Shown piece after piece: positions 5,004-23,227 of a stretch of DNA of 64,000 bases. A model generated the notes under the pieces. The model did not search any database. It was given only the letters and a program-made list of their open reading frames with translations, and was not told where the DNA came from. The position numbers were made by a program, and so were the translations under genes. The DNA comes from Burkholderiales bacterium (GTDB lineage: Bacteria > Pseudomonadota > Gammaproteobacteria > Burkholderiales > Burkholderiaceae_C). The DNA lies in the NCBI GenBank assembly GCA_026932235.1, contig JAIXKR010000082.1, forward strand, positions 1-64,000. The letters are read 5' to 3'. Position 1 is the stretch's first letter, and every line of letters begins with the position of its first letter.

Positions 5004-5196
5004 GATCCCTCCTGTGGCTTCTCGCCTCTGCCCGCCCGCTCATTCTTGATCAACCCTCGTCGCCACGCCATCGCCCCCCCTCATTCAAGGGGGAGTGCGC
5101 ATCACCTCCTCGGTCGTCGAAACAGCGCGCCTGCCCGCATCAACCACGAGCAAGCCCGTGACGAACCGGGTTTATCCTCATGCGCTCCGCGCTCAA

Positions 5197-5204: not shown

Positions 5205-5276
5205 GTATCCACGTGATCGAACCGGCGCGCCCTTGCGCCCTGCGGTGCGCGCCCGGCCCGGTGGTGGAGACTGCTC

Positions 5277-6062
5277 TTGAACCCACGCTCGCTCACCCCG
5301 GTGCAGCGCCCTCGCGCGCTCGCCGACCAGGTCTACCAGGCGCTGCGCGAACAGCTGCGCGCGGGGGCCATCGGTGCCGGCAGCGCCTTGCAGGAGGTGC
5401 AGCTGGCGACGCAGCTGGGCGTCTCGCGCACGCCGGTGCGCGAGGCCCTGGCACGGCTGGCGAGCGAGGGCCTGCTCGCCACGCACGGACGCAGCTTCAC
5501 CGTGCCCTCGCTGACGCTGGCCGACGTCGAGGACATCTACGAGCTGCGCTTCCTCATCGAGCCCGCTGCCGCGCGCCGCGTGGCCCCGCGCACCGTCGAC
5601 CGGCGCACGCGCGCACCCATCGACACTGCCTTGGCCGACGCCGCCGCGGCACACGACCGAGGCGAACTCGCGGCCTTTCACGAAGCCAACGTGCGCTACC
5701 GCGCAGCCTGGCTGGCGCTGGTGCCGAACGCGCGCCTGGTGCGCATGATCGAGCTCTATGCCGACCACATGCAGCACATCCGCGCGCTGACGCTGGGCCA
5801 GCCACGGGTGCGCACCATCGTGCTGCACGGGCTGCAGCGCATCACCGCGGCGCTGGCCTCGGGCGACGCCGATGCCGCGGCCGACGCCGTCCACGCGCAC
5901 CTGAAGAACGCCCGCAAGGCCTTCGTCGAGGCGCTGGGCCTGGACGTCGCGCCCGCAGCGCGCCTGCCCGGCATCGAAGCTGCGCCCGATTCCATGCCGT
6001 CTGCGCCGCGCGCGCCGCGCCGCACACCGCCCCGCATGAGCATGAAGGAGAGCAACGCATGA
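5277..6062 (+). CDS. GntR family regulator with FCD domain, first gene of the iaa-type operon
   Basis: 261 residues starting at TTG, chosen because a GGAG site lies 7 bases upstream and translation runs straight into the DNA-binding domain. An N-terminal winged helix (residues about 10-75, with QLGVSRTPVREALARLASEGLL) is followed by an FCD ligand-binding domain (DVEDIYELRFLIEPAAAR, FHEANVRYR and a C-terminal helical bundle). FCD regulators usually respond to small carboxylates or their CoA esters. The published indoleacetate-degradation cluster of Azoarcus/Aromatoleum also contains a GntR regulator. Its stop overlaps the thiolase start, so it is co-transcribed with the pathway. The inducer is inferred to be indoleacetate or an intermediate. 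Confidence 0.9.
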   Translation: MNPRSLTPVQRPRALADQVYQALREQLRAGAIGAGSALQEVQLATQLGVSRTPVREALARLASEGLLATHGRSFTVPSLTLADVEDIYELRFLIEPAAARRVAPRTVDRRTRAPIDTALADAAAAHDRGELAAFHEANVRYRAAWLALVPNARLVRMIELYADHMQHIRALTLGQPRVRTIVLHGLQRITAALASGDADAAADAVHAHLKNARKAFVEALGLDVAPAARLPGIEAAPDSMPSAPRAPRRTPPRMSMKESNA

Positions 6063-7264
6063 ATCACCGCGCCGTCATTCCGTACGGGGCCTACTGGAGC
6101 ACGCCCTTCGCGCGCTGGCAGGGGGCCTTCGCCACCCTCAACAGCCTCGAGTTCGCGGCGCACGTCGTGCGCGCCGAGCTCGCGCAGCGGCGCATCGACC
6201 CGACGGTCTTCGACCACGGCGTGCTCGGCATCTCGGTGCCGCAGAAGCATTCCTTCTACGGCCTGCCCTGGCTGGCGGGCCTCGCCGGCATTCCGGCACT
6301 GGCCGGACCGACGCTGATGCAGGCCTGCGCCACCGGCGTGCGCACGCTGCTGGCGGGCGCGCAGGAGATCGACGCCGGGCTGGCCAGCACCGTGCTCGTC
6401 GTCAACGCCGACCGCACCAGCAACGGCCCGCACCTCTATTACCCCAACCCCCGCGGCCCCGGCGGCACCGGTGTCGCCGAGGACTGGGTGATGGACAACT
6501 TCGGCTGCGACCCGCTCGGGCACCACTCGATGCTCGCCACCGCCGAGAACGTCGCCAGCCGCCATCGCGTCACCACCGCCGAGCAGCACGAGGTCGTGCT
6601 GGCGCGCGAGGCGCAGTACCAGGAGGCGCTGGCCGACGGCGCGGCCTTCCTCAAGCGCTTCATGACGCTGCCCTTCGCGGTGCCGGCACCGGGCTTCAAG
6701 AAGGTCGCCACCACGCTCGAGGGCGACGAGGGCGTCGGCCGCTCGACCGCCGAGGGTCTGGCGGCGCTGAAGCCGGTGATGCCCGGCGGCAGCGTCACCT
6801 ACGGCGGCCAGACGCACCCGGCCGACGGCAACGCCGGCCTCGTGCTCACCACGCCGGAGCGCGCGCGCGAACTCGCCACCGACCCGAAGATCGCGGTGCG
6901 CCTGCTCGGCTTCGGCCAGGCGCGCGTCGAGCTCGCACTCATGCCCGAGGCGCCTGCCCCGGCCGCGGCGCGCGCGCTCGCGCAGGCGGGGCTGGCCATC
7001 GGCGACATCGACGTCGTGAAGACGCACAACCCCTTCGCGCTCAACGACCTCGTGTTCGCGAAGGTGATGGGCATCCCCTGGCAGCCGATCAACCCGTTCG
7101 GCTGCTCGCTGGTCTGGGGCCATCCGCAGGCGCCTATGGGCACGCGCGCCGTCATCGAGATGATCGAGGCGCTTGCGCTGCGCGGCGGCGGGCGCGGCCT
7201 CTTCACCGGCTGCGCCGCCGGTGACAGCGCGATGGCGGTGGTGATCGAGGTCGGCGACGCCTGA
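6059..7264 (+). CDS. Beta-ketothiolase, probable 2-aminobenzoylacetyl-CoA thiolase
   Basis: 401 residues from an ATG overlapping the regulator stop. The thiolase triad is visible: acylated cysteine in MQACATG (Cys90), histidine in KTHNPFALND (His323) and the C-terminal cysteine in FTGCAAGDS (Cys385). A GHP segment (SLVWGHPQAPMG) lies at the usual place near the end. The surrounding residues depart from the common NEAFA and GHPLGASG motifs, so it is not a standard acetoacetyl-CoA or PhaA-type thiolase. In an iaa-type pathway the last step is thiolytic release of acetyl-CoA from 2-aminobenzoylacetyl-CoA to give 2-aminobenzoyl-CoA, and this gene is the only thiolase in the operon. Substrate is inferred from context. 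Confidence 0.85.
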   Translation: MNHRAVIPYGAYWSTPFARWQGAFATLNSLEFAAHVVRAELAQRRIDPTVFDHGVLGISVPQKHSFYGLPWLAGLAGIPALAGPTLMQACATGVRTLLAGAQEIDAGLASTVLVVNADRTSNGPHLYYPNPRGPGGTGVAEDWVMDNFGCDPLGHHSMLATAENVASRHRVTTAEQHEVVLAREAQYQEALADGAAFLKRFMTLPFAVPAPGFKKVATTLEGDEGVGRSTAEGLAALKPVMPGGSVTYGGQTHPADGNAGLVLTTPERARELATDPKIAVRLLGFGQARVELALMPEAPAPAAARALAQAGLAIGDIDVVKTHNPFALNDLVFAKVMGIPWQPINPFGCSLVWGHPQAPMGTRAVIEMIEALALRGGGRGLFTGCAAGDSAMAVVIEVGDA

Positions 7265-7284
7265 TTGCAGCGCCCGAGCCGGCC

Positions 7285-8856
7285 ATGGACCTGCTGCCCG
7301 CCGACTGGATCCACGCTGCCGCGGCGCGCCACGGCGACCGTTGCGCGCTGCGCTGCGGGCACGAAAGCCTGAGCTACGAAGCGATGGCGCGCGCGATCGA
7401 GGTCCACGAGCGTGCGTTGGCGGCCTGCGGAGTCGGACAAGGCCAGGTGGTCGCCTGGCTGGGCCTCAACAGCGGCGCCATGCTGACGCTGCTGTTCGCC
7501 TGCGCCCGACGCGGCACGCTCTTCGTGCCGCTGAACTGGCGTCTGGCACCACCCGAACACCGCGCGATGCTCGCCGAGTGCCGGCCGGCGCTGCTCTTCG
7601 CCGACGCGCCATTCGCTGCGCCCAGCGACGCCGCAGCGGTGGCTGCCGCGGATACACGCTGCATCGCCGTGGACGCGGCGGACCGGCCGCCGCACTGGAT
7701 GAGTCTGCCGGACTTTCTCGAGGCCGGACAGGGCGGCGAACCGCCGCCGCGCGTGGCCGTCTCGCCGCAATCGCCGCTGCTGCTCTGTTACACCTCGGGC
7801 TCCACCGGCCGCCCGAAGGGCGTGCTGCTCTCGCACGAGGCGCTGTGCGCCAACGCCGACGCCAGCGTCGACATGCACGCCATGGTCGAATCCGACCGCG
7901 TGCTGACGACGCTGCCGCTCTTCCACGTCGGCGGCCTCAACATCCAGACCCTGCCGGCGCTGCGTGAGGGTTGCCGCGTCGAACTGCATCCCAAGTTCGA
8001 CCCGGCGGCGGCGCTCACGGCCATCGAACGGGAGCGCATCACGCTCACCGTGCTCGTGCCGGCGCAGTTGGACGCCGTGATGGCGCTGCCGCAGTGGCCG
8101 AGCACCGACCTCTCCAGCCTGCGCGCCATCTCCACCGGCTCGACGGTGGTCCCCGAGCGCCTGTGCCACGCGGTGCACGCGCGCGGCGTGCCGCTCATTC
8201 AGGTCTGGGGCGCCACCGAGACCTCGCCCATCGCCGCCTGCCAGCACGCCGACGAGGCGGTGCGCACCGCCGGCTCGGCCGGACGCGCGGCGCTCGGCGT
8301 CGAGCTGCGCATCGTCGACGCGGCGGGCGATGATCTGCCCACGGGGCAGTCGGGCGAAATCCTCGTGCGCGGGCGCAACGTGATGAGCGCCTACTGGCAG
8401 GATCCGCAGGCCACGGCACGCGTGCTCGTCGACGGCTGGTTCCACTCCGGCGACCGCGGGCGGCTGGACGCGCAGGGCTTCCTGTGGGTCGACGGCCGGA
8501 TCAAGGACATGATCATCTCCGGCGGCGAGAACGTCAGCCCGGCCGAGGTCGAGATCGCGCTGCAGGAGGACCCGGACGTCGCCGAGGCCGCCGTCGTCGG
8601 CCGCCCCGACGCGCGCTGGGGCGAGCGCGTCGTCGCCGTCGTCGTGCCGCGGCCGGGCGTGCAGATCGCGCCGCGCGAGGTGATGGCGCGCCTGGAAGGC
8701 CGCATCGCGCGCTTCAAGCAACCCAAGCAGGTCTTCGTCGTCGATGCGCTGCCGCGCACGGCGCTGGGCAAGGTGCGCAAGGAAGACGTGCGCAGCCTCG
8801 TCGCGCAGCTCGACGACGGGGCCGCGCGCCCAGCCTCCAGGGAGTCCTCTGCATGA
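7285..8856 (+). CDS. iaaB: AMP-forming acyl-CoA ligase, probable indoleacetate-CoA ligase
   Basis: 523 residues with the full adenylate-forming enzyme signature: P-loop YTSGSTGRPKG near residue 170, GATET near 310, GDRGRLDAQGFLWVDGRIKDMI near 395, and the C-terminal catalytic lysine in PRTALGKVRKE near 498. It activates a carboxylic acid with ATP and CoA. In Aromatoleum the ligase of the iaa cluster (IaaB) is an indoleacetate-CoA ligase, and this gene has the same neighbours. Its stop overlaps the start of the next gene (ATGA). Assignment to indoleacetate rests on context; the family alone would also allow other aryl or medium-chain acids. Confidence 0.85.
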   Translation: MDLLPADWIHAAAARHGDRCALRCGHESLSYEAMARAIEVHERALAACGVGQGQVVAWLGLNSGAMLTLLFACARRGTLFVPLNWRLAPPEHRAMLAECRPALLFADAPFAAPSDAAAVAAADTRCIAVDAADRPPHWMSLPDFLEAGQGGEPPPRVAVSPQSPLLLCYTSGSTGRPKGVLLSHEALCANADASVDMHAMVESDRVLTTLPLFHVGGLNIQTLPALREGCRVELHPKFDPAAALTAIERERITLTVLVPAQLDAVMALPQWPSTDLSSLRAISTGSTVVPERLCHAVHARGVPLIQVWGATETSPIAACQHADEAVRTAGSAGRAALGVELRIVDAAGDDLPTGQSGEILVRGRNVMSAYWQDPQATARVLVDGWFHSGDRGRLDAQGFLWVDGRIKDMIISGGENVSPAEVEIALQEDPDVAEAAVVGRPDARWGERVVAVVVPRPGVQIAPREVMARLEGRIARFKQPKQVFVVDALPRTALGKVRKEDVRSLVAQLDDGAARPASRESSA

Positions 8857-10958
8857 CGCTCAAGATCGGCATCGACGTCGGCGGTACCTTCACCGACTTC
8901 GTCATCACGCAGGACGGCCAGCCGCCGCGCATCCACAAGACGCTGTCGACGCCGGCCGACCCGTCGATTGCCGTCGTGCAGGGCCTGCAGGAGATCGCGC
9001 AGGGCCTGCAGCCGCCGCGCACGCTGCAGCAGCTGGCGCAGGCGCTGGACACCATCGTGCACGGCACGACGGTGGCGACCAACGCGACGCTGACTTCCAC
9101 CGGCGCCAAGACCGCGCTGCTGACCACCGACGGCGTGCGCGACGCGCTCGAGATGCGCCGCGGCATCCGTGAGGAGCAGTACAACAACCGCTACCGCAAC
9201 GTCGTGCCGCTGGTGCCGCGCGCGCGCCGCATCGGCGTGCCCGGCCGGCTCGACAGCCAGGGCCAGGAAGTGCAGCCGCTGGACGAGCAGGCCATCGAGG
9301 CGGCGCTGGCCGCCTGGCGCGACGAAGACGTGCAGGCGGTGGCGATCTGCTTCATGAACGCCTTCGCCAACCCCGCGCACGAGCAGGCCGCCGCCGCCCA
9401 GGTGCGGCGCGCGCTGCCGCGCGCCTACGTCTCGGTCTCGACCGAGGTGCTGCCCTCGATCCGCTTCTACGAGCGCGTCAGCACCACCGTGCTCAACGCC
9501 TACGTCGGCCCCAAGCTCGGCCACTACCTCGACCAGCTCGTCGGTCGACTGCAGGAGATCGGCTTTGGCGGACTGCTGCTCATCATGCAGAGCAACGGCG
9601 GCGTGATCTCGCCGCAGGCCGCGCGCGACAAGGCGGCACTCACGCTGCTCTCGGGGCCGGCCGGCGGCCCGGGCGCCGGGCTCTTCTACGCGCAGGCGCT
9701 CGGGCAGGACCGCTGCATCACCACCGACATGGGCGGCACCAGCTTCGAGACCTCGGTGGCCGTGCGCGCGCCGATGCTCAAGAACGACGGCGAGATCGCC
9801 CGCCACAAGATCGCGCTGCCGATGCTCGACATCCACACCATCGGCGCGGGCGGCGGCTCGATCGGCTGGCTGGACGAAGGCGGCCTGCTGCGCATGGGCC
9901 CGCAGAGCGCGGGTGCCGCGCCGGGGCCCGCGTGCTACGGCAAGGGCGGCACGCTGCCCACGACCACCGACGCCAACGTCGTGCTCGGCTACCTGGACCC
10001 CGGCTACTTCGCCGGCGGCAGCATGAAGCTCGACGCCGAGGCCGCGCGCCGCGCGATCGAAGAGCACATCGCGCAGCCGATGGGCCTGTCGGTCGAGCGT
10101 GCTGCCGCGGGCATGTACCGCGTCGCCTGCAACAACATGGCGCAGGGCGTGCGCGAGGTGACGATCAAGCGCGGCTTCGACCCGCGCGAGTTCCCCATCA
10201 TCCCCGGCGGCGGCGCCGGTCCGATCCACGCCTGCCTGATCTGCACCGAGCTCGGCATCCCGCTCATGATCGTGCCGCGCGAGGCCTCGGTGCTGTGCGC
10301 CTTCGGCATGCTGATGGGCGAGTTGAAGCACGACTTCGTGCGCACCTTCGTGGCGCGCCTGACGCAGCTGGACTGGGCGCGCCTCTCGACCCTGGTCGAC
10401 GAGATGGCGGCCGAAGGCGCGGCCCTGCTCGAGGGCGAGCGCGTGCCGCGCGCGCAGCAGCGCATCGAGCTGCGCCTGGACTGCCGCTACCTGCGCCAGT
10501 ACCACGAGGTCTCGGTGCCGGTGCCGCTGGCGGCGGTGCAGCAGCGCGACGCCGCGGCCATCGCGCGCGCCTTCCACGACGAGCACCAGCGCCTCTTCGG
10601 CTACACGCTGGAGGCCGAGGGCAGCGTGGTCGAGATCATCAACCTGCGCCTGCAGGCCATCGGCGCCACCACGCGCCCGGACATCGCGCGCCAGACCCCG
10701 GGCGCGCCCGACGCCAGCGCCGCGCGCAAGGGCCGGCGCCGCATGTACCTGCCCGAGCGCGACGACTTCGCCGAGGTCGACGTCTACGACGGCCACCGCA
10801 TGCGCGCCGGCCACCGCGTGCCGGGTCCGGCGCTGATCGAGCAGCAGACGACGGCGATCTTCGTCTCCGAAGGCTTCGACAGCCTGGTCGACGGTCTCGG
10901 CTCCTTCGTGCTCTACGCCAAGGGCCGCGAGGATCTCGTCACCGCCGCGATCGCCTGA
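8853..10958 (+). CDS. Hydantoinase/oxoprolinase family subunit A, probable 2-oxoindoleacetate ring-opening enzyme
   Basis: 701 residues with the HyuA arrangement: an N-terminal ATPase-type fold (GIDVGGTFTDFV at residues 6-17, HGTTVATNA near 68), the central GGTSFE segment, the glycine-rich GAGGGSIGW, and PGGGAGPIHA near residue 447. The family comprises ATP-dependent amide hydrolases (N-methylhydantoinase, 5-oxoprolinase) and acetone/acetophenone carboxylases. Opening the lactam ring of 2-oxoindoleacetate (or its CoA ester) is a hydantoinase-like reaction and was proposed for this gene in the iaa cluster. It works with the HyuB-type protein encoded next. No third, small carboxylase subunit is present, which argues against acetone carboxylase. 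Confidence 0.87.
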   Translation: MTLKIGIDVGGTFTDFVITQDGQPPRIHKTLSTPADPSIAVVQGLQEIAQGLQPPRTLQQLAQALDTIVHGTTVATNATLTSTGAKTALLTTDGVRDALEMRRGIREEQYNNRYRNVVPLVPRARRIGVPGRLDSQGQEVQPLDEQAIEAALAAWRDEDVQAVAICFMNAFANPAHEQAAAAQVRRALPRAYVSVSTEVLPSIRFYERVSTTVLNAYVGPKLGHYLDQLVGRLQEIGFGGLLLIMQSNGGVISPQAARDKAALTLLSGPAGGPGAGLFYAQALGQDRCITTDMGGTSFETSVAVRAPMLKNDGEIARHKIALPMLDIHTIGAGGGSIGWLDEGGLLRMGPQSAGAAPGPACYGKGGTLPTTTDANVVLGYLDPGYFAGGSMKLDAEAARRAIEEHIAQPMGLSVERAAAGMYRVACNNMAQGVREVTIKRGFDPREFPIIPGGGAGPIHACLICTELGIPLMIVPREASVLCAFGMLMGELKHDFVRTFVARLTQLDWARLSTLVDEMAAEGAALLEGERVPRAQQRIELRLDCRYLRQYHEVSVPVPLAAVQQRDAAAIARAFHDEHQRLFGYTLEAEGSVVEIINLRLQAIGATTRPDIARQTPGAPDASAARKGRRRMYLPERDDFAEVDVYDGHRMRAGHRVPGPALIEQQTTAIFVSEGFDSLVDGLGSFVLYAKGREDLVTAAIA

Positions 10959-10976
10959 CCCAAAGGACCGACTGCC

Positions 10977-12668
10977 ATGACGACCATCGACCCCATCCTG
11001 CTCTCGGTCTACGCGCGCAGCTTCAAGGCCATCACCGACGAGATGAGCATCTCGATGGAGCGCACGACGCGCAGCCCCATCCTCTGCGAGGCCAAGGACT
11101 ACGTCACCGGCCTCTACGACGCCGAGGGCCGCATGCTCGAGCAGACCGAGAACCTGCCCATCCTCGCGTTCTCGCTCGCGCCGGTGTGCAAGCACATCCG
11201 CAAGACCTTCGAGGGCGACATCCACGACGGCGACGTCTTCTTCCACAACGACGTCTTCAGCCTGGGCAACCAGAACAACGACGTCGCCGTCTTCAAGCCC
11301 GTCTTCTTCGAAGGCGAGCTCGTCGCCTGGACGGCGGTGAAGGGGCACCAGGCCGACATCGGCGGCAACGTCGCCGGCGGCTACAACCCCAACGCCGTCG
11401 AGGTCTGGCAGGAGGCGCTGCGCATCCCCGCGGTGAAGGTGGTCGATCGCGGCAAGCTGCGCCAGGACGTGTGGAACCTGATCTTCGCCAACGTGCGCCT
11501 GGAGATCGTGCAGCACGACATGAAGGCCGAGATGGGCGCCTGCGAGATCGGCGCGCGGCGCATGCTCGAACTGCTCGGCAAGTACGGCGCAGCCAGCTAC
11601 GCGGCGCACAAGCAGGCGCTCTTCGACGCCACGCGCCGCATGATGCAGGCCGAGATCGCGAAGATCCCCAATGGCCGCTACAGCGGCGAGGGCTACGTCT
11701 ACTACGACGGGCGCCACGAGGGCAGCAAGTTCACCATCCGCGTCGACATCGAGGTGCAGGCGCAGTCGATCCGCTTCGACTACTCGCGCACCGACGCGCA
11801 GACCAACGGCTTCGTCAACGGCACCTTCACCTCCAGCGCCTCGGCCACCATCCTCACGCTGCTGCAGATGGTCAACCCCGACATCCCGCACAACGAGGGC
11901 ATGGTCGAGCCCATCGAGATCGTCATCCCCGAAGGCACCATCCTCAACGCCGCCTATCCCAAGGCGACGACCTTCGGCAACCACCTCTGCCCGCCCAACG
12001 CCGACGCCATCCAGCGCGCGCTGGCGCCGGTGCTGCCCGACCGCGTCACCGCCGGCTGGAACAACCTGCTGGCCTCGCTCACCACCGGCATCGACCCGCG
12101 CCACGGCGAGAAGTACGTCGACATCGGCTTCATGGGCCTCAAGGGCGGCTCGGGCGCGCTGCAGGGCTGCGACGGCTACGACCACATCGGCATGATCGAC
12201 GCCTCCGGCGGCGTGCTCGACCAGGACTACGAGATGTTCGAGCAGCAGACGCCGCACCGGCTGAAGAAGCACGAACTGCTCGCCGATTCCGCCGGCCCCG
12301 GGCGCTGGCGCGGCGGCCTGGGCGTGGAGACGATCTTCGAGATCGGCAGCGACGACACGCAGCTCGTCACCTTCGGCGACGGCGACTTCGAAGGCGCGTT
12401 TGGTCTCGCCGGCGGCCAGGGCGCGGGGCTGAACTTCATCCGCCTGCACTACCCCGACGGCCGCACCGTGGTGCCGAAGAACAAGGACCTCATCACCGGC
12501 GTGCCCAAGGGCACCGTCTACCACCAGGTCGCCCACGGCGGCGGCGGCTTCGGCGACCCGCGCCTGCGCGACCGCAGGCTGCTCGCCGAGGAGGTGCGAA
12601 ACGGCGTCATCTCCAAGGAGGCCGCCGTGCGCGACTACGGCGCCACGGCCGCGGAGCTGGAGGCATGA
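10977..12668 (+). CDS. Hydantoinase family subunit B, partner of the ring-opening enzyme
   Basis: 563 residues of the HyuB family. The N-terminal pattern DPILLSVYARSFKAITDEM leads to SITMER-like text (SISMERTTRSPIL), ending with GGGGFGDPRLRDRR, a well-known HyuB C-terminal signature. Conserved GDVFFHNDVFSLGNQNNDV lies near residue 85. An AAAGGA ribosome-binding site lies about 8 bases upstream of the ATG. HyuA and HyuB proteins form a complex that hydrolyses cyclic amides with ATP. Adjacent to hyuA and coupled to the acyl-CoA dehydrogenase by a 4-base overlap. From memory of the literature, the Aromatoleum counterparts are called IaaC and IaaE. Confidence 0.87.
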   Translation: MTTIDPILLSVYARSFKAITDEMSISMERTTRSPILCEAKDYVTGLYDAEGRMLEQTENLPILAFSLAPVCKHIRKTFEGDIHDGDVFFHNDVFSLGNQNNDVAVFKPVFFEGELVAWTAVKGHQADIGGNVAGGYNPNAVEVWQEALRIPAVKVVDRGKLRQDVWNLIFANVRLEIVQHDMKAEMGACEIGARRMLELLGKYGAASYAAHKQALFDATRRMMQAEIAKIPNGRYSGEGYVYYDGRHEGSKFTIRVDIEVQAQSIRFDYSRTDAQTNGFVNGTFTSSASATILTLLQMVNPDIPHNEGMVEPIEIVIPEGTILNAAYPKATTFGNHLCPPNADAIQRALAPVLPDRVTAGWNNLLASLTTGIDPRHGEKYVDIGFMGLKGGSGALQGCDGYDHIGMIDASGGVLDQDYEMFEQQTPHRLKKHELLADSAGPGRWRGGLGVETIFEIGSDDTQLVTFGDGDFEGAFGLAGGQGAGLNFIRLHYPDGRTVVPKNKDLITGVPKGTVYHQVAHGGGGFGDPRLRDRRLLAEEVRNGVISKEAAVRDYGATAAELEA

Positions 12669-13807: not shown

Positions 13808-14202
13808 ATTCGAACCGACGCATCAAGATCGTCCTCGCCAAGCCGGGGCTGGACGGCCACGACCAGGGCGCCAAGGTGGTGGCGCGCGCGCTGCTGGACG
13901 CCGGCTTCGACGTGCACTACACGGGTCTGCGCCAGTCGCCGGAGATGGTCGTCGACGCCGCGCGGCGCGAGAACCCGGACGTGATCGCGCTGTCTTCCAT
14001 GGCCGGCGCGCACCTGCCCTTCTGCACGCGGCTCAAGCCCCTGCTGGAAGAAGCGGGAATGGGGGAGCGGCTGTGGATCATCGGGGGCAATATCCCGGTT
14101 GCCGACCACGACGCGCTGCGCGCGCTCGGCTTCAAGGGCGTGTTCGCCACCGGCAGCAAGCTCGACGCCATCTGCGACTTCATACGGGAGAACGTGCGAT
14201 GA
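13804..14202 (+). CDS. Cobalamin-binding subunit of an acyl-CoA mutase
   Basis: 132 residues starting at TTG inside the preceding stop (TTGA). An upstream ATG in frame would give an unsupported extension through the dehydrogenase gene. The protein is a free-standing B12-binding domain: DGHDQG (Asp17, His19, Gly22) is the DxHxxG motif whose histidine becomes the lower cobalt ligand, followed by MAGAHL and IIGGNIP matching the SxL and GG cobalamin-binding loops. It forms a two-subunit mutase with the next gene, as in the split 2-hydroxyisobutyryl- or archaeal methylmalonyl-CoA mutases. Probably the small subunit of the IaaGH-type mutase. Confidence 0.92.
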   Translation: MNSNRRIKIVLAKPGLDGHDQGAKVVARALLDAGFDVHYTGLRQSPEMVVDAARRENPDVIALSSMAGAHLPFCTRLKPLLEEAGMGERLWIIGGNIPVADHDALRALGFKGVFATGSKLDAICDFIRENVR

Positions 14203-15830
14203 ACCTTCCTCCTGGCGTGCGCCCGGTGCGCAACGAATCGGGCATCGAAGTCAAGCCGCTCTACACCGCCGAGGACGTCCAGGCCAGCGGCGGCCTGGCG
14301 ATGCTGGGCCTGCCCGGCGAATACCCGTTCACGCGCGGCATCCATCCGCTCATGTACCGCAAGCAGCCCTTCACGATGCGGCAGTACACGGGCTTCGGCA
14401 ACGCCGCCGACACCAACCGGCGCTTCAAGTTCCTCATCGACAACGGCCAGACCGGGCTCAACGTCGCCTTCGACCTCTCGACGCAGTGCGGCCTCGATTC
14501 CGACGACCCCATGGCCGAGGGCGAGGTCGGACGCGTGGGCATGGCGGTGGACACGCTGCGCGACTTCGAGATCGCCTTCGACGGCATCGACCTCGACAAG
14601 ATCACCGTCTCGCTGACCATCAACGGCGCGGCGGCGATCCTCATCGCCATGTATCTCGCGATGGCCGAGAAGCGCGGCTTCGACCTCAAGACGCTGCGCG
14701 GCACGGCGCAGAACGACATCCTCAAGGAGTTCGTCGGGCGGGGGACGTGGATCTACCCGGTCGAGCCCTCCATCCGCCTCGTCGGCGACACCATCGAGTA
14801 CTGCGCCGAGCACGCGCCCAAGTACAGCCCGGTGTCCGTGTGCGGCTACCACATCCGCGAGTCGGGCGCGACACCGACGCAGGAGATGGCCTACGGCTTC
14901 TGCATCGCGCGCGCCTACGCCGACGAGGTCATCAGGCGCGGCGTGCCGGTGGACGAGTTCGCCGGGCGCCTGTCCTACAACTTCAACATCTTCGGCAACA
15001 TCTTCGAGCAGGTCGCGAAGTTCCGCGCCGGCCGCGGCCTGTGGGCCAAGATCATGAAGGAGGAGTACGGCGCGCAGAAGCCGGGCTCGATGTGGCTGCG
15101 CATGATCGCCGGCGGCGGCGGCGGCGGCCTCACGCTCGAGCAGCCGGAGAACAACATCGTGCGCGGCGCCTACTACGCGCTGCTGGCCGCGCTCTCGGGC
15201 GCGCAGACGATGGCGCTGTGCTGCTACGACGAGGCCTACACGATCCCGAGCGAATACGCACAGCGCATCTCGCTGCGCACCATGCAGCTGCTGGTCGAGG
15301 AGATGGGGCTGGCCGAGACGGTGGACCCGCTGGGCGGCTCCTACTACGTCGAGACGCTGACCAACCAGATGCGCAGCGAGATGGAGCGCATCATCGCCGA
15401 GACCGACGCCGCCGGCGGCATCGTCAAGCTCATCGCCGACGGCAGCATCCAGTCGCGCGTCTCGGCGCAGGCCTACCGCATGGCGCGCGCGATCGAGAGC
15501 GGCGCCTTCCCCAAGGTCGGCGTCAACCGCTACCGCAGCGACGAGGAGGTGCAGCGCCCGGTCGAGCTGCACCCCTATGACGCCGCCGCCGCGCAGGCGC
15601 AGGTGGCGGCGCTGGCACGCGTGCGCGCCGAGCGTGACCGCATGGCCGTCGAGCGCGCGCTGGTGCGCGTGACCGCCGACGCCAAGGCCGGTGCCAACCT
15701 GATGCCGGCCATCGTCGAAGCGGTGAAGGCCTACGCGACGGTAGGCGAGATCACGCAACGCCTGGTCGGCGTCTTCGGCCGCTACCGCGAGCCGGTGCGC
15801 TTCGACCACCGCGAGGAGCAGGCGGCATGA
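14199..15830 (+). CDS. Acyl-CoA mutase large subunit, probable (2-aminobenzyl)malonyl-CoA mutase
   Basis: 543 residues, the substrate-binding TIM barrel of the B12-dependent acyl-CoA mutases without the cobalamin domain. Shared with methylmalonyl-CoA mutase are MRQYTGFG (Tyr63), AQNDILKEF, PSIRL (Arg193), GYHIRESGATPTQEMAY and DPLGGSYYVE. Two active-site stretches differ. The RTHSQTSG-type motif is replaced by RMIA and six glycines (305-310), and the QSLHTN-type motif becomes QTMALCC. Loss of the His/Gln contacts and insertion of glycines would open room for a bulky aromatic substrate. This fits conversion of 2-aminophenylsuccinyl-CoA to (2-aminobenzyl)malonyl-CoA. Not a propionate-pathway mutase. 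Confidence 0.88.
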   Translation: MNLPPGVRPVRNESGIEVKPLYTAEDVQASGGLAMLGLPGEYPFTRGIHPLMYRKQPFTMRQYTGFGNAADTNRRFKFLIDNGQTGLNVAFDLSTQCGLDSDDPMAEGEVGRVGMAVDTLRDFEIAFDGIDLDKITVSLTINGAAAILIAMYLAMAEKRGFDLKTLRGTAQNDILKEFVGRGTWIYPVEPSIRLVGDTIEYCAEHAPKYSPVSVCGYHIRESGATPTQEMAYGFCIARAYADEVIRRGVPVDEFAGRLSYNFNIFGNIFEQVAKFRAGRGLWAKIMKEEYGAQKPGSMWLRMIAGGGGGGLTLEQPENNIVRGAYYALLAALSGAQTMALCCYDEAYTIPSEYAQRISLRTMQLLVEEMGLAETVDPLGGSYYVETLTNQMRSEMERIIAETDAAGGIVKLIADGSIQSRVSAQAYRMARAIESGAFPKVGVNRYRSDEEVQRPVELHPYDAAAAQAQVAALARVRAERDRMAVERALVRVTADAKAGANLMPAIVEAVKAYATVGEITQRLVGVFGRYREPVRFDHREEQAA

Positions 15831-16702
15831 CGACCAGCACCGTGCAGAAGTACCTGGCCCCGACGCGGCTGGAGCCGGCGCTGGCGGCGCTGGCGCTGCC
15901 CGGCGGCGCCACCGTGCTCGCCGGCGGCACCGACCTCGCGCCGCAGACCGAGGCCGGCACGCGCCGCTACGCCGCACAGCTGCTCAACATCCGCCGCGTC
16001 GAGGGCCTGGCCGGCATCCGCGACGAGGGCCAGGCGATACGACTGGGCGCGACGACCACCGTCAGCGAGATCCGCCAGAGCGCACTGCTGGCGCAAGTGG
16101 CGCCGGCGCTGGTGCAGGCCGCCGAGCGCTTCGCCAGCGAGCAGATCCGCAACGCCGCCACCGTCGGCGGCAACCTCTGCAACGCGAGTCCGGCCAGCGA
16201 CCTGAGCCCGCCGCTGCTGGTGCTGGACGCCGAGGTCGAGCTCTGCAGCTGGCGCGGCAACGCCCAGCACACGCGCCGCCTGCCGCTGGCGCAGTTCTTC
16301 CTGGCCCCGGGGCGCACGCTCAAGGAGCCCGACGAGCTGCTCACCGCCGTCGTCTTCGCGCGCCCGGGCGCCGGTTTCGTGTCGCGCTTTCGCAAGGCCG
16401 GGCCGCGGCCGGCGCTCGAGATCTCGACCGTCTCCCTGGCGCTGGGCGCGCGCCTGCAGGACGGCCGGCTGCAGCAGGTGCGCGTGGCGCTGGGCTCGGT
16501 GGCACCGACGCCGCTGCGCGCGCGCCGCGCCGAGGCCGCGCTCGAAGGCCGCGCGCTCGACGAGGCCGCGATCGCCGCGGCCGTTGCGGCCGCGGCCGAG
16601 GACGCGCGGCCCATCGACGACGTGCGCGCCAGCGCCTGGTACCGCGGCCATCTCGTGCGCGTGTTCATGGAAGAGGTGCTTCACGATGTCGCCGAAAACT
16701 GA
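15827..16702 (+). CDS. FAD-binding subunit of a molybdenum hydroxylase (CoxM type)
   Basis: 291 residues of the FAD-binding medium subunit of the xanthine dehydrogenase family. The N-terminal half holds the FAD loop GGATVLAGGTDL (residues about 26-37) and the second flavin motif ATVGGNLCNASPASDLSP near residue 110; the C-terminal CO_deh_flav domain follows. It passes electrons from the Fe-S subunit to an acceptor. The three subunits (flavin, 2Fe-2S, molybdopterin) are encoded consecutively, starting with this one, whose ATG overlaps the mutase stop. In the published iaa pathway a Mo-dehydrogenase hydroxylates C2 of the indole ring with water as oxygen source. Confidence 0.92.
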   Translation: MTTSTVQKYLAPTRLEPALAALALPGGATVLAGGTDLAPQTEAGTRRYAAQLLNIRRVEGLAGIRDEGQAIRLGATTTVSEIRQSALLAQVAPALVQAAERFASEQIRNAATVGGNLCNASPASDLSPPLLVLDAEVELCSWRGNAQHTRRLPLAQFFLAPGRTLKEPDELLTAVVFARPGAGFVSRFRKAGPRPALEISTVSLALGARLQDGRLQQVRVALGSVAPTPLRARRAEAALEGRALDEAAIAAAVAAAAEDARPIDDVRASAWYRGHLVRVFMEEVLHDVAEN

Positions 16703-17159
16703 GATCCGCTTCAAGCTCAACGGCCGCGAGCTCCAGCTCGAGGTGCCGGTGACGATGAAGACCCTGGACCTGCTGCGCGAGCGCCTGGGCCTCACCGGCA
16801 CCAAGTACGCCTGCGGCGAGGGCGAGTGCGGCGCCTGCACGGTGCAGGTCGACGGCAAGACCGTCAACAGCTGCCTCATGTACGCCGTCGACCTGGACGG
16901 CCGCGAGCTGCTCACCATCGAGGGCCTGCGCACGCCGCAGGCCCTGCACCCGGTGCAGCAGGCCTTCGTCGACCACGGCGCCGTGCAGTGCGGCTTCTGC
17001 ATGCCGGGCATGATCATGCAGGCCAACTACCTGATCGAGAACCAGCCCGGGCTCACGCGCGAGCAGGCGAAGCGCGGCCTGGAGGGCAACCTCTGCCGCT
17101 GCACGGGCTACACCAAGGTGCTGGACGCGGTCGAGGCCGTGGTCCAGAGCAAGGCTTGA
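16686..17159 (+). CDS. 2Fe-2S subunit of the molybdenum hydroxylase
   Basis: 157 residues. The ATG at 16686 is chosen over an upstream in-frame start because it begins directly at the ferredoxin domain; it overlaps the flavin-subunit gene by 17 bases. The N-terminal plant-type 2Fe-2S domain is marked by CGEGECGACTVQVDG and NSCL. The C-terminal helical 2Fe-2S domain carries VQCGFCMPGM and NLCRCTGY. This is the small subunit (CoxS/XdhA type) that transfers electrons between the molybdenum centre and FAD. Confidence 0.95.
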   Translation: MSPKTEIRFKLNGRELQLEVPVTMKTLDLLRERLGLTGTKYACGEGECGACTVQVDGKTVNSCLMYAVDLDGRELLTIEGLRTPQALHPVQQAFVDHGAVQCGFCMPGMIMQANYLIENQPGLTREQAKRGLEGNLCRCTGYTKVLDAVEAVVQSKA

Positions 17160-17169
17160 GGAGCGCACC

Positions 17170-19548: not shown

Positions 19549-19560
19549 GCGCGGGTGCCG

Positions 19561-19812
19561 ATGAAGCTGAAGTACTTCGCCTGGCTGCGCGACAGCCTCG
19601 GATGCGATGCCGAAGAGATCACGCTGCCCGGCGAGGTCCGCACCGTGGGCCAGTTGCTCGACTGGCTGCCGACACAGGGCGAACGCTTCCGGCGCGCCTT
19701 CGAGTTCATCGACGTCGTTCTGGTCTCGGTCAATGCCGAGTACGCGCATCGCAGCGACCCCGTGCGTGACGGCGACGAGGTCTTCCTGGTGCCGCCGATC
19801 GCCGGCGGCTAG
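19561..19812 (+). CDS. MoaD/ThiS-family sulfur carrier protein
   Basis: 83 residues with the ubiquitin-like fold pattern of MoaD: KLKYFAWLRDSLG at the N-terminus, an EVFLVPPIAGG end, and the terminal Gly-Gly that is adenylated and thiocarboxylated. ATG at 19561 is preferred to a GTG two codons earlier. MoaD donates sulfur for molybdopterin. Here it lies directly after a molybdenum enzyme and may be a dedicated copy that boosts cofactor supply when the operon is on, or a sulfur carrier for another step. No MoaE or MoeB gene is beside it. The role is inferred. Confidence 0.85.
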   Translation: MKLKYFAWLRDSLGCDAEEITLPGEVRTVGQLLDWLPTQGERFRRAFEFIDVVLVSVNAEYAHRSDPVRDGDEVFLVPPIAGG

Positions 19813-19845
19813 GGAGGAGCAAGTGGACGACTGCGGCGAGGGGGC

Positions 19846-21045
19846 ATGAAGAGGCGCACCGTGCTGTCGATGGAGCAGGCGCTGTCGCTGCCTTACGCGA
19901 CGCTGCGCTTTGCGCAGCTGGGATGGCGCGTCATCCGCCTGGAGGCCACGCCCAGCGGCGAGGGCCTGCCCGGCGACCCCAACCGCTACATCGGCAGCCG
20001 CCTCGAAGGCGACGCGCGCGGCGACCGCCGCAGCTACTTCGTCGCTCCCAACGTCGGCAAGGAGGCGATCGCGCTCAACCTGAAGGACGCGCAAGGGCGC
20101 GCGCTGCTGCAGCGGCTGCTGAACGCGCTCGAGGTCGACGTCTTCTGCTGCAACACCGTGCCCTCGCGCTACGCGGCGCTGGGCATCGACGAGGCGACGC
20201 TGCGCGCGGCGCGCCCGGGCCTGATCTGGGCCGGCATCTCGGCGCAGGGGCCGCAGGTGCCCGACGCGCCGGGCTACGACCCGGTCGTGCAGGCCATGGC
20301 CGGCTACATGGAGCTCACCGGCGAGCGCGAGGGGCCGCCCATGCTCACCGGCGTGCCGGTGATCGACCTCAAGGCCGGCGACGAGCTCTACGCCGGCGTG
20401 CTGCGCGCCCTGCTCGAACGCGCCGAGAGCGGCCAGGGCCAGGCCATCCACGTCTCCATGCTGCAGGCCGCGGCCTCGTGGCTGATCACCGTGCTGCCGC
20501 TGCTGGACTTCGGCTGCCGCCCCGACGAGATCACGCGCGCGGGCAACGAGCACCGCAAGTTCATCCCCACCAACGTCTACGCCGCGCGCGACGGCTACGT
20601 CTACCTGGCCATCGGCAGCGACGTGCAGTGGCGCCGCCTCACCGCCGACCCCGCCTTCGCGCCGGTGGCCAGCACCGCGCGCCAGACCAACGAGGGCCGT
20701 CACGCCGAGCGCGCCGCCATCCACCGCGACATGGGCGCCGCCATCGCGCAGTTGACGGTCGACGAGGCGCTGGCGCGCCTGCACGCGGCCACCGTCCCGG
20801 CCACGCGCATCCACGACATCCCGCAGCTGCGCGCGCTGCCGGTGCTGGCCGACAAGCTCACCCACACCACGCTTCCCGACGGCCGCCGCGTCGCCATGCA
20901 GCCCATGGCCTGCGACGTGCCCGGCGCGCGCACCGAACTGCCCTTCCCGCCCGCCTACGGCGCGCACACGCGGGCGCTGCTCGCCGAAGCCGGGCTTGAC
21001 GCCGACGAGATCGAGACGCTGGCGCAAGCCGGCGTCATCGCCTGA
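19846..21045 (+). CDS. iaaL: Class III CoA-transferase (CaiB/BaiF), probable aminophenylsuccinyl-CoA forming
   Basis: 399 residues of the formyl-CoA transferase family. Visible are the early CoA-binding pattern [17 protein letters not shown] near residue 67, [21 protein letters not shown] near 135, the catalytic aspartate in [20 protein letters not shown] (Asp174) and the [13 protein letters not shown] segment. The characterised IaaL of Aromatoleum is a phenylsuccinyl-CoA transferase of this family that moves CoA between acids of the indoleacetate pathway. The N-terminus is unusual in lacking the normal opening (PL.G..V.DL), beginning instead with [20 protein letters not shown]. Family certain; substrate from context. 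Confidence 0.86.
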
Positions 21046-21082
21046 GACCACACCCCGCCCGCATCCGCCACGAGGTCCGCAC

Positions 21083-23143
21083 GTGAATGCCGCCGCCTTC
21101 GCCAACCCGCTGCTCCAGACCCCGACCCGAGGCGCGCCGCGGCGCATCGCCGTCGTCGGCGCCGGCACCATCGGCCCGGACATCGCCTACTACCTGAAGT
21201 CGGCACTGCCGGCACTCGAACTGACGCTGCTGGACGTGCGCCAGGCGGCCATCGATGCCGCGCTGGCGCGGCTGCGCGGCTACGCCGACAAGGCCGTGGC
21301 ACGCCGCAAGATGAGTGCCGAGGCCGCGGCCGCCACTTTGGCTGGCCTCACGGGGAGCAACGACTACGACAGCCTCGCGGGCTGCGACTGGGTGCTGGAA
21401 GCGGCGACCGAGGACCTGGCGCTGAAGCGGCGCATCTTCGCCGACGTCGAGGCCCGCGTCGGCGCGCAGGCGGTGATCACCTCCAACACCAGTTCGCTTC
21501 CGGCCGCGCGCATCTTCCAGGACCTGGCACACCCCGAGCGCGCAACGGTGACGCACTTCTTCGCACCCGCCTGGCGCAACCCGGCGGTGGAGGTCATCGA
21601 CTGGCCGGCGCTGGACCGCGAACTGCTGGCCTGGCTGCGCCGCTTCTTCGCCGAGACGGGCAAGCTGCCGCTGGTGACCAAGGACGCGGCCTGCTTCATG
21701 CTCGACCGCGTCTTCGACAACTGGTGCAACGACGCCGCGCTGCTGCTGGAGCACGCGACCGCGGCGCAGATCGACACCGTGGCAAGCGAGTTCGTGCACG
21801 CCGGACCCTTCTTCGTGCTCAACCTCGCGCACGGCAACCCGATCATCATCGAGACCAACACCCTGCAGGCGGAAGAGGAAGGCGAACACTACCGGCCCGC
21901 GCCCATCTTCGCCTCGGTGCAGACCTGGAAGACCAACGCCCCGGGCGAGCGCGCCGAGCTCACGCCCGAACGGGCCGCGATCGTGCGCGAGCGGCTTCTG
22001 GGCGTGCTCTGGTCGCAGACGGTGGACATCCTCGACCGCGGCATCGGCTCGGCCGCCGACCTGGACCTCGGCTGCCGCGTCGCGCTGGGCTTCAAGGCCG
22101 GCCCGCTCGAGCTGATGGAGCAGTGCGGCGACGACATGGCCGCACGCGTGCTGCAGCGCTACGCCGAAGCGCGCCCCGGAATGCCGATGCCGCGGCGCGC
22201 GCTCCCGGCCTATCGACCCGGCGAGCGCCACGTGCTCGTCGACCGCGTGCACGATCGCGAGGGCGGCGGCGGCGACGACGTCGTCGTCATCACGCTGCGG
22301 CGGCCCGAGGCGCTGAACGCGCTGCACGACGCCATGACCGACGACATCCTGCACGCCATCCGCCGCCACGAGGACGATGCCACCGTCGCCGGCTTCGTCA
22401 TCACCGGCTATGGCCAGAAGGCCTTCTGCGCCGGCGGCGACATCGGCCGCTTCCCGACGCTGCTGGGCAACGCCGATGGCGCGGCGCAGTACGCGCGCGA
22501 CTGCTCGCGCCTGCTCGTGCACCTGGACGCCGCGCGCAAGCCGGTGGTCGCGGCCATCCAGGGCATGGCGCTGGGCGGCGGATTCGAGCTCGCCATGCGC
22601 TGCCACGCGCTGGTGGCGCAGCGCCAGGCCTGGTTCCAGCTGCCCGAGGTGTCGCTGGGCATCCTGCCGGCGATCGGCGCGATGGTCGTCCCCTTCCGAC
22701 GTTGGCCGCAGGCGGCGCCGATCTTCCAGCGCATGCTGACCCGGGCCGAGCGCCTGCGCGCGGCCGACGCACACGCCGCGGGCATCGTCGCCGAACTGGC
22801 CGAGGATTTCGACGACCTCATCGCCCGCGCCGCAGCGCGCGTGCGCCTGCTCGCGCGGCAAGGCCGGCCGCCACGGCCGGCCGAAGCCGCGGTCACGCTG
22901 CCGCCGTTCGCGCCGGCGCCCACCGACGGCCCGCTGCGCGCCGCCGACGGCCGCGTGCTCTCGCCCACCGTGGTGCGCGTGATCGAGCAAGGCGTTCTCG
23001 ACGCCGCAGCGGCGCCCTCGCTCGGCGCGGCGCTGGAGGTCGGCTACCGCGCCTTCGGCGAGGTCTCGTGCACCGACGCGGCGCGCGAAGGCATCCAAGC
23101 CTTCCTCGAGCACCGCGACCCCGATTTCACCCGCACCGGCTGA
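21083..23143 (+). CDS. 3-hydroxyacyl-CoA dehydrogenase / enoyl-CoA hydratase fusion
   Basis: 686 residues starting at GTG 21083; longer in-frame starts would run into the CoA-transferase gene. The N-terminal dehydrogenase domain carries the NAD loop VVGAGTIGPDIA (about residue 23) and the catalytic histidine in VTHFFAPAW. The hydratase domain occupies roughly residues 390-610 with the oxyanion segment FCAGGD and both catalytic glutamates (GGGFELA and LPEVSLGILP). Order is dehydrogenase then hydratase, opposite to FadB. It would hydrate 2-aminocinnamoyl-CoA and oxidise the product to 2-aminobenzoylacetyl-CoA. The published iaa cluster contains such a fusion. Confidence 0.9.
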   Translation: MNAAAFANPLLQTPTRGAPRRIAVVGAGTIGPDIAYYLKSALPALELTLLDVRQAAIDAALARLRGYADKAVARRKMSAEAAAATLAGLTGSNDYDSLAGCDWVLEAATEDLALKRRIFADVEARVGAQAVITSNTSSLPAARIFQDLAHPERATVTHFFAPAWRNPAVEVIDWPALDRELLAWLRRFFAETGKLPLVTKDAACFMLDRVFDNWCNDAALLLEHATAAQIDTVASEFVHAGPFFVLNLAHGNPIIIETNTLQAEEEGEHYRPAPIFASVQTWKTNAPGERAELTPERAAIVRERLLGVLWSQTVDILDRGIGSAADLDLGCRVALGFKAGPLELMEQCGDDMAARVLQRYAEARPGMPMPRRALPAYRPGERHVLVDRVHDREGGGGDDVVVITLRRPEALNALHDAMTDDILHAIRRHEDDATVAGFVITGYGQKAFCAGGDIGRFPTLLGNADGAAQYARDCSRLLVHLDAARKPVVAAIQGMALGGGFELAMRCHALVAQRQAWFQLPEVSLGILPAIGAMVVPFRRWPQAAPIFQRMLTRAERLRAADAHAAGIVAELAEDFDDLIARAAARVRLLARQGRPPRPAEAAVTLPPFAPAPTDGPLRAADGRVLSPTVVRVIEQGVLDAAAAPSLGAALEVGYRAFGEVSCTDAAREGIQAFLEHRDPDFTRTG

Positions 23144-23192
23144 CGCGAGCACGCGCCCGGCCCACTCCGCAACGAGGACCATGCACGAGATC

Positions 23193-23227
23193 GACGACGG
23201 GAGGCAGCGGGGCCGTGCCCCGTCGTC
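23193..23227 (+). other. Hairpin in the gap before the indolepyruvate oxidoreductase gene
   Basis: A perfect 9-base stem (GACGACGGG with CCCGTCGTC) and a 17-base loop sit in the 249-base gap 23144-23392. There is no T-run, so it may be an mRNA-processing or attenuation structure instead of a full terminator. The same gap holds two overlapping small open frames. Confidence 0.4.

What the first reader, a model, noticed from the sequence alone, without database searches (positions are those of the whole stretch)
5277..23143. Complete indole-3-acetate (auxin) degradation operon of the anaerobic iaa type
Seen: GntR/FCD regulator, thiolase, AMP ligase, HyuA, HyuB, acyl-CoA dehydrogenase, split B12 mutase, three-subunit Mo hydroxylase, CoA-transferase and a dehydrogenase/hydratase fusion, in one tightly overlapping run. 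Known: exactly this set was described as the indoleacetate-induced cluster of Azoarcus evansii/Aromatoleum aromaticum, with IaaB, IaaF and IaaL characterised biochemically. Inference: this organism turns indoleacetate into 2-aminobenzoyl-CoA and acetyl-CoA by an oxygen-independent route, and may do so in plant-associated or denitrifying conditions.
Basis: partly seen in the sequence, partly recalled or inferred. Interest (0 to 1): 0.78.

Follow-up and report, generated by a model that had tools for sequence, protein, structure and literature searches.

The report
Auxin-degradation operon with swapped molybdenum enzyme
This is a complete bacterial gene set of a known kind for breaking down the plant hormone auxin without oxygen, but its molybdenum enzyme is a different version that has been swapped into place, and a neighbouring gene suggests that the pathway may also be fed from tryptophan.

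Summary
In detail: 5277-23143 carries an unbroken same-strand run of 14 genes matching the anaerobic indoleacetate (iaa) operon, with the GGG signature of IaaF. The order recurs in Aromatoleum toluclasticum and many other genomes. The pathway is known.

"Exactly this set" is overstated. (1) The three Mo-hydroxylase subunits are 52-62% identical to those of A. toluclasticum, while HyuAB, IaaF and the mutase are 70-87%. (2) A fused indolepyruvate:ferredoxin oxidoreductase (IOR) gene follows 249 bases later. It falls in a clade of iaa-linked IORs; 14 of 28 testable relatives have a fused IOR within 10 kb downstream. This suggests, but does not prove, that indoleacetyl-CoA can also come from tryptophan. 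(3) No transporter gene lies beside the operon.

The genome holds BcrCBAD, two NirS-like genes and a 2-aminobenzoyl/salicylyl-CoA monooxygenase-type gene, so both anaerobic and aerobic completion look possible. Intact narG was not found. New variant of a known kind.

The parts
5277..6062 (+). GntR/FCD regulator (IaaR/IaaQ-like); true start may be one of several later GTG/TTG codons
   Evidence: PF00392 and PF07729; a relative was found in 29 of 65 loci, 42-73% identical in 27 of them
6059..7264 (+). IaaA-like thiolase: releases acetyl-CoA and 2-aminobenzoyl-CoA (inferred)
   Evidence: PF00108/PF02803; 71% to A. toluclasticum L006
7285..8856 (+). IaaB-like indoleacetate-CoA ligase, AMP-forming
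   Evidence: AMP-ligase families; 55% to L006, same place
8853..10958 (+). HyuA-like ATP-dependent lactamase subunit: ring opening (inferred)
   Evidence: below the cut-offs of caprolactamase and acetophenone carboxylase; 74% to L006; nearest solved chain 6yra 5-oxoprolinase
10977..12668 (+). HyuB-like lactamase subunit
   Evidence: 87% to L006
12665..13807 (+). IaaF-like decarboxylating (2-aminobenzyl)malonyl-CoA dehydrogenase with GGG motif
   Evidence: GGG at residues 363-365, as in 62 of 63 aligned rows, the other cut off before it; motif defined in PMC8360864; 79% to L006
13804..14202 (+). B12-binding small subunit of the acyl-CoA mutase (IaaG/H)
   Evidence: TIGR00640 over cut-off
14199..15830 (+). 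large subunit of the acyl-CoA mutase (IaaG/H)
   Evidence: TIGR00641 over cut-off; 80% to L006
15827..16702 (+). FAD subunit of the Mo hydroxylase, type 2 (swapped cassette starts here)
   Evidence: 52% to L006 but 74% to L016
16686..17159 (+). 2Fe-2S subunit of the Mo hydroxylase, type 2
   Evidence: 62% to L006 but 83% to L016
17170..19548 (+). Mo-binding catalytic subunit of the Mo hydroxylase, type 2
   Evidence: PF01315, PF02738, PF20256; nearest solved chain 4-hydroxybenzoyl-CoA reductase 1rm6; tree; signature differences
19561..19812 (+). MoaD-like molybdopterin synthase sulphur carrier with C-terminal Gly-Gly, part of the swapped cassette
   Evidence: TIGR01682 over cut-off; present in 6 of 6 type-2 betaproteobacterial loci that reach the place, window included
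19846..21045 (+). IaaL-like family-III CoA-transferase
   Evidence: PF02515; 66% to L006
21083..23143 (+). IaaP-like 3-hydroxyacyl-CoA dehydrogenase/enoyl-CoA hydratase fusion
   Evidence: PF02737, PF00725, PF00378; 64-68% in L012, L016, L060
23393..26956 (+). fused indolepyruvate:ferredoxin oxidoreductase (IOR) of an iaa-linked clade
   Evidence: NF009588 over cut-off; linkage; tree

Best explanation
The locus encodes the iaa pathway, which turns indoleacetate into 2-aminobenzoyl-CoA plus acetyl-CoA. Steps, with their basis: the ligase makes indoleacetyl-CoA (IaaB, reported in print); the Mo hydroxylase adds a water-derived oxygen at C2 of the indole ring (inferred); HyuA/HyuB open the resulting lactam using ATP (inferred); the CoA-transferase moves CoA between the two carboxyls (IaaL, reported in print); the B12 mutase makes (2-aminobenzyl)malonyl-CoA (proposed in print); IaaF oxidises and decarboxylates it (shown in print with benzylmalonyl-CoA); the fusion protein and thiolase finish a beta-oxidation round (inferred). 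Two things set this copy apart. The Mo-hydroxylase cassette, with its own MoaD, is a second, non-orthologous form that has repeatedly replaced the usual one at the same operon position. And an IOR beside the operon, of a clade that goes with iaa operons, probably supplies indoleacetyl-CoA directly from tryptophan-derived indolepyruvate, without ATP and with reduced ferredoxin as by-product. The product can then go to benzoyl-CoA reductase without oxygen or, possibly, to the monooxygenase-type enzyme with oxygen.
For: Synteny and identity with A. toluclasticum and other iaa loci; GGG motif in 62 of 63 rows as defined in PMC8360864. Swap: Mo-subunit tree joins window, L011, L016, L060 and L065 (SH-aLRT 100), while the mutase+dehydrogenase tree scatters window, L011, L016 and L065 (AU p 1.1e-11, minimum 4 changes); L016/L022 proteins 82-96% from regulator to mutase, 49/62/55% for the three Mo subunits, 87% for the CoA-transferase, with the DNA dropping at the same borders. 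IOR: 14 of 28 testable loci within 10 kb downstream; clade of 16 IORs; other oxoacid:ferredoxin oxidoreductases directly after the CoA-transferase in L059, L061, L062, L064. Genome: BcrCBAD over cut-offs, NirS-like genes at about 500 bits, NF006101 at 1355 bits. BcrB over cut-off in 35 of 51 iaa genomes against 7 of 300 of the window's order (own genome in both).
Against: No aminotransferase was seen beside the operon, so the tryptophan route is incomplete at the locus; IOR-family enzymes also act on other aryl pyruvates (recalled). 10 of the 28 testable loci have neither a fused IOR within 10 kb downstream nor the other oxidoreductase after the CoA-transferase (L006, L025, L028, L032, L035, L048, L053, L055, L063, L065), A. 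toluclasticum among them; L055 has only a weak 23% match upstream on the other strand. In L040, one of the 14, the gap holds mostly opposite-strand genes. That type 1 and type 2 Mo enzymes do the same reaction is inferred from position only. narG was not found intact. The genome is 81% complete with 5.8% contamination, so bcr, nirS and the monooxygenase, on other contigs, could be mis-binned.
Confidence: 0.78

Rival explanations
1. It is the ordinary iaa operon for external indoleacetate only; the IOR next door is a general amino-acid catabolic enzyme and its adjacency has no pathway meaning.
For: A. toluclasticum has the operon without an IOR within 10 kb downstream; IOR relatives are common: 46 of 50 searched genomes have a match at E up to 1e-10, some of them weak, and many have several; the window's own genome has two further copies.
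Against: The adjacent IORs of betaproteobacteria form one clade apart from 21 other sampled IORs of iaa genomes; in L049 the IOR begins 62 bases after the CoA-transferase while no ligase or thiolase was matched in that 21 kb locus; unrelated oxoacid oxidoreductases sit at the same place in L059, L061, L062 and L064.
Confidence: 0.3
2. Because its Mo hydroxylase is non-orthologous, the operon acts on a related compound (another indolic or aryl acid) rather than indoleacetate.
For: Type 1 and type 2 differ consistently in conserved motifs of the Mo subunit, e.g. GAKGVGEAPA against GAKGISELPT, ASEIGQGSE against ASEIGQGID; the ligase is also the least conserved enzyme outside the Mo module (55% to L006).
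Against: HyuAB, IaaF, the mutase and the CoA-transferase are conserved, and the cassette replaces type 1 at the same place in otherwise very similar operons (L016/L022), which implies the same step. Ligases are also poorly conserved between operons that share type 1 (62% for L006/L012).
Confidence: 0.15
3. The pathway runs mainly with oxygen present: IaaF passes electrons to oxygen and the product is finished by the monooxygenase-type enzyme.
For: IaaF of A. aromaticum used only oxygen among the acceptors tested (PMC8360864); NF006101 over cut-off in 38 of 51 iaa genomes against 41 of 300 of the order.
Against: BcrB over cut-off in 35 of 51 against 7 of 300, 26 of the 51 having both by my reading of the two lists; BcrCBAD and NirS-like genes in this genome. 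The family model does not separate 2-aminobenzoyl-CoA from salicylyl-CoA enzymes.
Confidence: 0.25

Closest known systems
iaa operon of Aromatoleum aromaticum EbN1 / A. evansii (anaerobic indoleacetate degradation)
   Same: regulator, thiolase, ligase, HyuA/HyuB-like pair, IaaF with GGG motif, split B12 mutase, Mo hydroxylase, CoA-transferase, dehydrogenase/hydratase fusion; order as in A. toluclasticum L006 except that L006 has the fusion upstream on the other strand
   Different: Mo subunits non-orthologous (52-62% to L006), MoaD added, IOR adjacent, no binding-protein gene (IaaM) and only one regulator adjacent; EbN1 itself was not compared, A. toluclasticum stood in for it
iac and iad operons (aerobic auxin degradation)
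   Same: same substrate; indolepyruvate ferredoxin oxidoreductase genes are named among the genes of auxin loci in a figure legend of PMC9613470
   Different: described in print as sharing limited homology with iaa (passages); I did not search the genome for iac or iad genes
4-hydroxybenzoyl-CoA reductase (1rm6)
   Same: closest solved relative of the Mo subunit, the only one at E up to 1e-100
   Different: NCBIfam TIGR03194 score 558 against a cut-off of 995, so not a member of that equivalog

Membership tests
iaa operon (anaerobic indoleacetate degradation) | Full enzyme set in one same-strand run | tested here: met
iaa operon (anaerobic indoleacetate degradation) | IaaF subclass GGG in place of the YEG motif | tested here: met
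   motif from PMC8360864
iaa operon (anaerobic indoleacetate degradation) | Gene order shared with an Aromatoleum species | tested here: met
   L006; the fusion gene sits elsewhere there
iaa operon (anaerobic indoleacetate degradation) | Mo hydroxylase orthologous to the Aromatoleum one (my own test, not stated as defining in the papers seen) | tested here: not met
   a second, non-orthologous form at the same position; the step is still covered
iaa operon (anaerobic indoleacetate degradation) | Adjacent binding protein IaaM | tested here: not met
   none seen beside the operon in the window; best match in the genome to the L090 protein 42% on another contig. Not needed for the chemistry
iaa operon (anaerobic indoleacetate degradation) | Induction by indoleacetate, activities of the enzymes | not testable with these tools
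   needs culture or purified enzymes
Caprolactamase / acetophenone carboxylase cluster | HyuA/HyuB over the curated cut-off | tested here: not met
   686 of 1000 and 379 of 1000 bits for caprolactamase; 342 of 1500 and 99 of 1500 for the nearest acetophenone carboxylase subunits
Fused indolepyruvate:ferredoxin oxidoreductase | Over the NF009588 cut-off, full length | tested here: met
   1632 bits against a cut-off of 952, residues 2-1161

The most novel reading that the evidence does not exclude
The iaa operon is modular: its ring-hydroxylating Mo enzyme travels between operons as a separate cassette with its own MoaD, and together with the iaa-linked IOR this locus is a tryptophan-to-aminobenzoyl-CoA pathway in which IOR both bypasses the ATP-using ligase and yields reduced ferredoxin that can drive the ferredoxin-dependent benzoyl-CoA reductase downstream.
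Probability: 0.35. Interest if true: 0.65.

Novelty: new variant of a known kind. Interest (0 to 1): 0.45.

Why it matters
The papers I could see treat iaa as a pathway for auxin itself. If the swap and the IOR link hold, the first ring attack is done by two interchangeable enzymes, giving a natural pair to study how Mo hydroxylases choose an indole ring, and the pathway joins tryptophan breakdown to anaerobic aromatic degradation with a possible saving of ATP and a ready source of ferredoxin electrons. Presence of the operon could then not be read simply as a sign of contact with plants.

Tried and rejected
Rejected: that the Mo subunits look divergent only because the whole operon is divergent (in the pair L016/L022 the genes on both sides are 82-96% and 87% identical, the Mo subunits 49-62%). 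Rejected: that the type-2 operons share one ancestor operon (AU p 1.1e-11 for the four that were in the core tree; L060 was left out because its dehydrogenase match covers only 70%). Rejected: another hydantoinase or acetophenone cluster. Led nowhere: literature on iaa plus IOR (one search listed 8 papers, none of whose listings joins iaa genes and IOR; one search listed none); promoter and terminator scan of 5000-24500 (no promoter-like site, 6 terminator-like sites against 5.2 in shuffles, none between 23143 and 23393); an aminotransferase near IOR was looked for only by eye in the ORF lists. The 2012 and 2016 iaa papers were not read: the 2012 paper is not held, the 2016 one was not looked up; what I say of IaaB and IaaL comes from passages of PMC8360864.

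Limits: the 41-row IOR tree used the window, all 16 linked copies and 24 others that I picked by hand from the longer list, which was itself cut at the weak end. 50 of the 65 loci with a dehydrogenase of 50% identity or more were given to the handle searches, and 13 of them. Trees are quick ones (SH-aLRT only).
Full report
What is there. The window is high in G+C, 69-75% in 4-kb steps, and lies on contig 135 of a genome of 3.86 Mb in 169 contigs, 80.9% complete and 5.8% contaminated. From 5277 to 23143 all genes of the run are on the + strand, with 4-base overlaps at six junctions, one 17-base overlap and gaps of 10-37 bases at the others. Two genes were missed: a MoaD-like gene at 19561-19812, over the TIGR01682 cut-off and ending in Gly-Gly, and a fused indolepyruvate:ferredoxin oxidoreductase (IOR) at 23393-26956, over the NF009588 cut-off. 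The nearest named record is a short contig of a MAG called Rubrivivax sp. (L005), 90-93% identical over the four genes it holds.

It is an iaa operon. Of 65 loci with a dehydrogenase of 50% identity or more, 61 hold the small and 60 the large mutase subunit, 52 a HyuA and 57 a HyuB relative, 45 the CoA-transferase, 44 a Mo subunit, 41 a thiolase, 36 a ligase, 29 a regulator and 16 a relative of the fusion protein; many contigs are short. The order regulator-thiolase-ligase-HyuA-HyuB-IaaF-mutase-Mo hydroxylase-CoA-transferase recurs in the fuller betaproteobacterial loci, among them A. toluclasticum L006 and Ca. Desulfobacillus denitrificans L012. The GGG motif that PMC8360864 gives as the mark of the IaaF subclass (section 15) is present in 62 of 63 aligned rows, window included; the remaining row is cut off before the motif. 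PMC8360864 reports IaaF as a benzylmalonyl-CoA dehydrogenase that decarboxylates and that used oxygen but none of the other acceptors tested, and cites IaaB and IaaL work (abstract, section 3 and part 1 of section 15 read). PMC9613470 lists iaaABCDEFGHIJKLMPQR for the Aromatoleum locus (passage).

The Mo-hydroxylase cassette has been swapped. The window's FAD, FeS and Mo subunits are 52, 62 and 55% identical to those of A. toluclasticum, while HyuA, HyuB, IaaF and the two mutase subunits are 74, 87, 79, 70 and 80%; the ligase (55%), regulator (61%) and CoA-transferase (66%) are also less conserved, so identity to L006 alone does not prove a swap. The trees do. In a tree of 41 Mo subunits the window joins L011, L016, L060 and L065 (SH-aLRT 100), and this group is sister to alphaproteobacterial copies (L036, L038, L039), not to the 25 common (type 1) copies. 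In a tree of mutase plus dehydrogenase (40 rows) the window sits with L009 and L017, L016 with L020 and L022, and L065 with the Sulfuritalea group, all of which carry type 1, while L011 sits beside the Rubrivivax/Ramlibacter group. The cassette type needs at least 4 changes on that tree, and one clade for window, L011, L016 and L065 is rejected (AU p 1.1e-11). The cleanest pair is L016 against L022: proteins 92, 94, 82, 91, 96, 94, 94, 95% from regulator to mutase, then 49, 62, 55% for the three Mo subunits, then 87% for the CoA-transferase; L016 against L060, both type 2, stays at 91-97% in the genes that could be compared. DNA identity along L016/L022 falls and recovers at the same borders. 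L031 carries type 2 after the CoA-transferase instead of before it. The MoaD gene was found in 6 of 6 type-2 betaproteobacterial loci that reach the place (window, L011, L016, L060, L065, L097) and in none of the 25 type-1 and 9 alphaproteobacterial loci of the tree, nor in L098-L101; the search used the window's MoaD and could miss a very different one. Several conserved motifs of the Mo subunit differ consistently between the types, while the glutamate at window residue 735 is kept in 38 of 41 rows, the other 3 having no letter there (its catalytic role is recalled from the xanthine oxidase family). In 399 genomes of the same order only 6, own included, have a Mo subunit at E up to 1e-200; the five others lie between mutase and CoA-transferase genes, so both types look tied to iaa operons there.

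An IOR belongs to the neighbourhood. One of these, L040, has mostly opposite-strand genes in between and should count for little. L051 has an IOR about 7 kb upstream of its ligase, and L067 has one 0.9 kb downstream but too little contig to enter the 28. In L059, L062 and L064, and in L061 which was outside the 28, a different oxoacid:ferredoxin oxidoreductase (thiamine-binding domain, with a POR domain in the same or the next gene where the contig stretch shows it) follows the CoA-transferase directly. The remaining 10 of the 28 (L006, L025, L028, L032, L035, L048, L053, L055, L063, L065) showed neither; L055 has a weak 23% match upstream on the other strand. In a 41-row tree the window's IOR falls in a clade of 16 (SH-aLRT 99): 13 linked copies, window included, and three (L009, L011, L022) whose iaa contigs end 0.4-4.7 kb after the last operon gene seen, so that linkage cannot be tested; 21 other IORs lie outside. 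The four linked alphaproteobacterial copies lie outside too, so linkage probably arose more than once. L049 and L067 have the IOR and no matched ligase or thiolase within their 21 kb. In L012, L016, L018 and L060 a binding-protein gene (the query itself in L012, 75-81% identical in the others) lies directly before the IOR; the window has none beside the operon, and the best match in its genome is 42% on another contig. I read the IOR as a second entry into the pathway, from indolepyruvate to indoleacetyl-CoA. That is inference: no aminotransferase was seen nearby and no activity was measured.

What the genome could do with the product. BcrC, B, A and D are all over their cut-offs on contig 166. 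BcrB is over cut-off in 35 of 51 iaa genomes and in 7 of 300 genomes of the order (own genome in both); the 51 are not all of that order, so this is a rough control. A. toluclasticum itself is not over the cut-off with this model, presumably because it has another reductase subtype (recalled). A full-length member of NF006101, named for salicylyl-CoA 5-hydroxylase and, as I recall, close to 2-aminobenzoyl-CoA monooxygenase/reductase, lies on contig 91 (1355 bits against 1078); 38 of 51 iaa genomes have one over cut-off, against 41 of 300. Reading the two lists together, 26 of 51 have both. Two NirS-like genes of about 500 bits lie on contig 131, beside a NapC/NirT-like gene just under its cut-off (308.3 against 310.6). 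narG gave no match over cut-off; one short match to its first 39 positions may be a gene cut by a contig end. So anaerobic use with nitrite is plausible, with nitrate undecided, and aerobic completion is possible as well.

Verdict. The finding is right in substance and the pathway is already known. The parts that I did not find in print (searches; term searches inside four papers, of which one search returned nothing) are the repeatedly swapped Mo cassette with its MoaD and the iaa-linked clade of IORs. The library lacks most subscription papers, the 2012 iaa paper among them.

Noticed in passing
L025, L029, L037, L042 and L033, L035, L041, L047, L050, L053: iaa-like loci where no HyuB was matched although the contig covers its usual place (first four), or only a distant one of 28-32% (the others); L035, L050 and L053 also lack a Mo hydroxylase next to the mutase. 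They may open the ring otherwise or use other substrates.
   Followed up: no
L059:16877-20320, L061:13155-16580: An IorA-like protein of about 1145 residues fused to a pyridine-nucleotide oxidoreductase domain and ferredoxin domains, followed by a separate POR-domain gene, inside iaa-like operons of non-proteobacteria; this could link the oxidation directly to NAD(P).
   Followed up: partly
L031:13230-17111: The type-2 Mo cassette lies after the CoA-transferase instead of before it, as if inserted at another place.
   Followed up: no
window 4227-5003, strand -: A protein whose C-terminal end (VPEPAGAVMMLAGLLGVGAALRRRREG) looks like a PEP-CTERM sorting signal; seen by eye in the translation, label recalled.
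   Followed up: no
window 2235-4189: HisG-like and HisD-like proteins upstream, recognised by eye from the translations, not scanned.
   Followed up: no
window 27038-46759: Carrier protein, MMPL-type exporter, ketoacyl synthase and PAP2 genes, possibly an aryl polyene or fatty-acid type cluster.
   Followed up: no
window 57028-58422, strand -: Pyridoxal-dependent decarboxylase (PF00282), about 30 kb from the operon; substrate unknown.
   Followed up: no
L066 (Ramlibacter monticola KACC 19175): A named isolate carries the operon, an IOR 8.4 kb after the CoA-transferase, BcrB and the monooxygenase-type gene, so it could serve for growth tests.
   Followed up: partly
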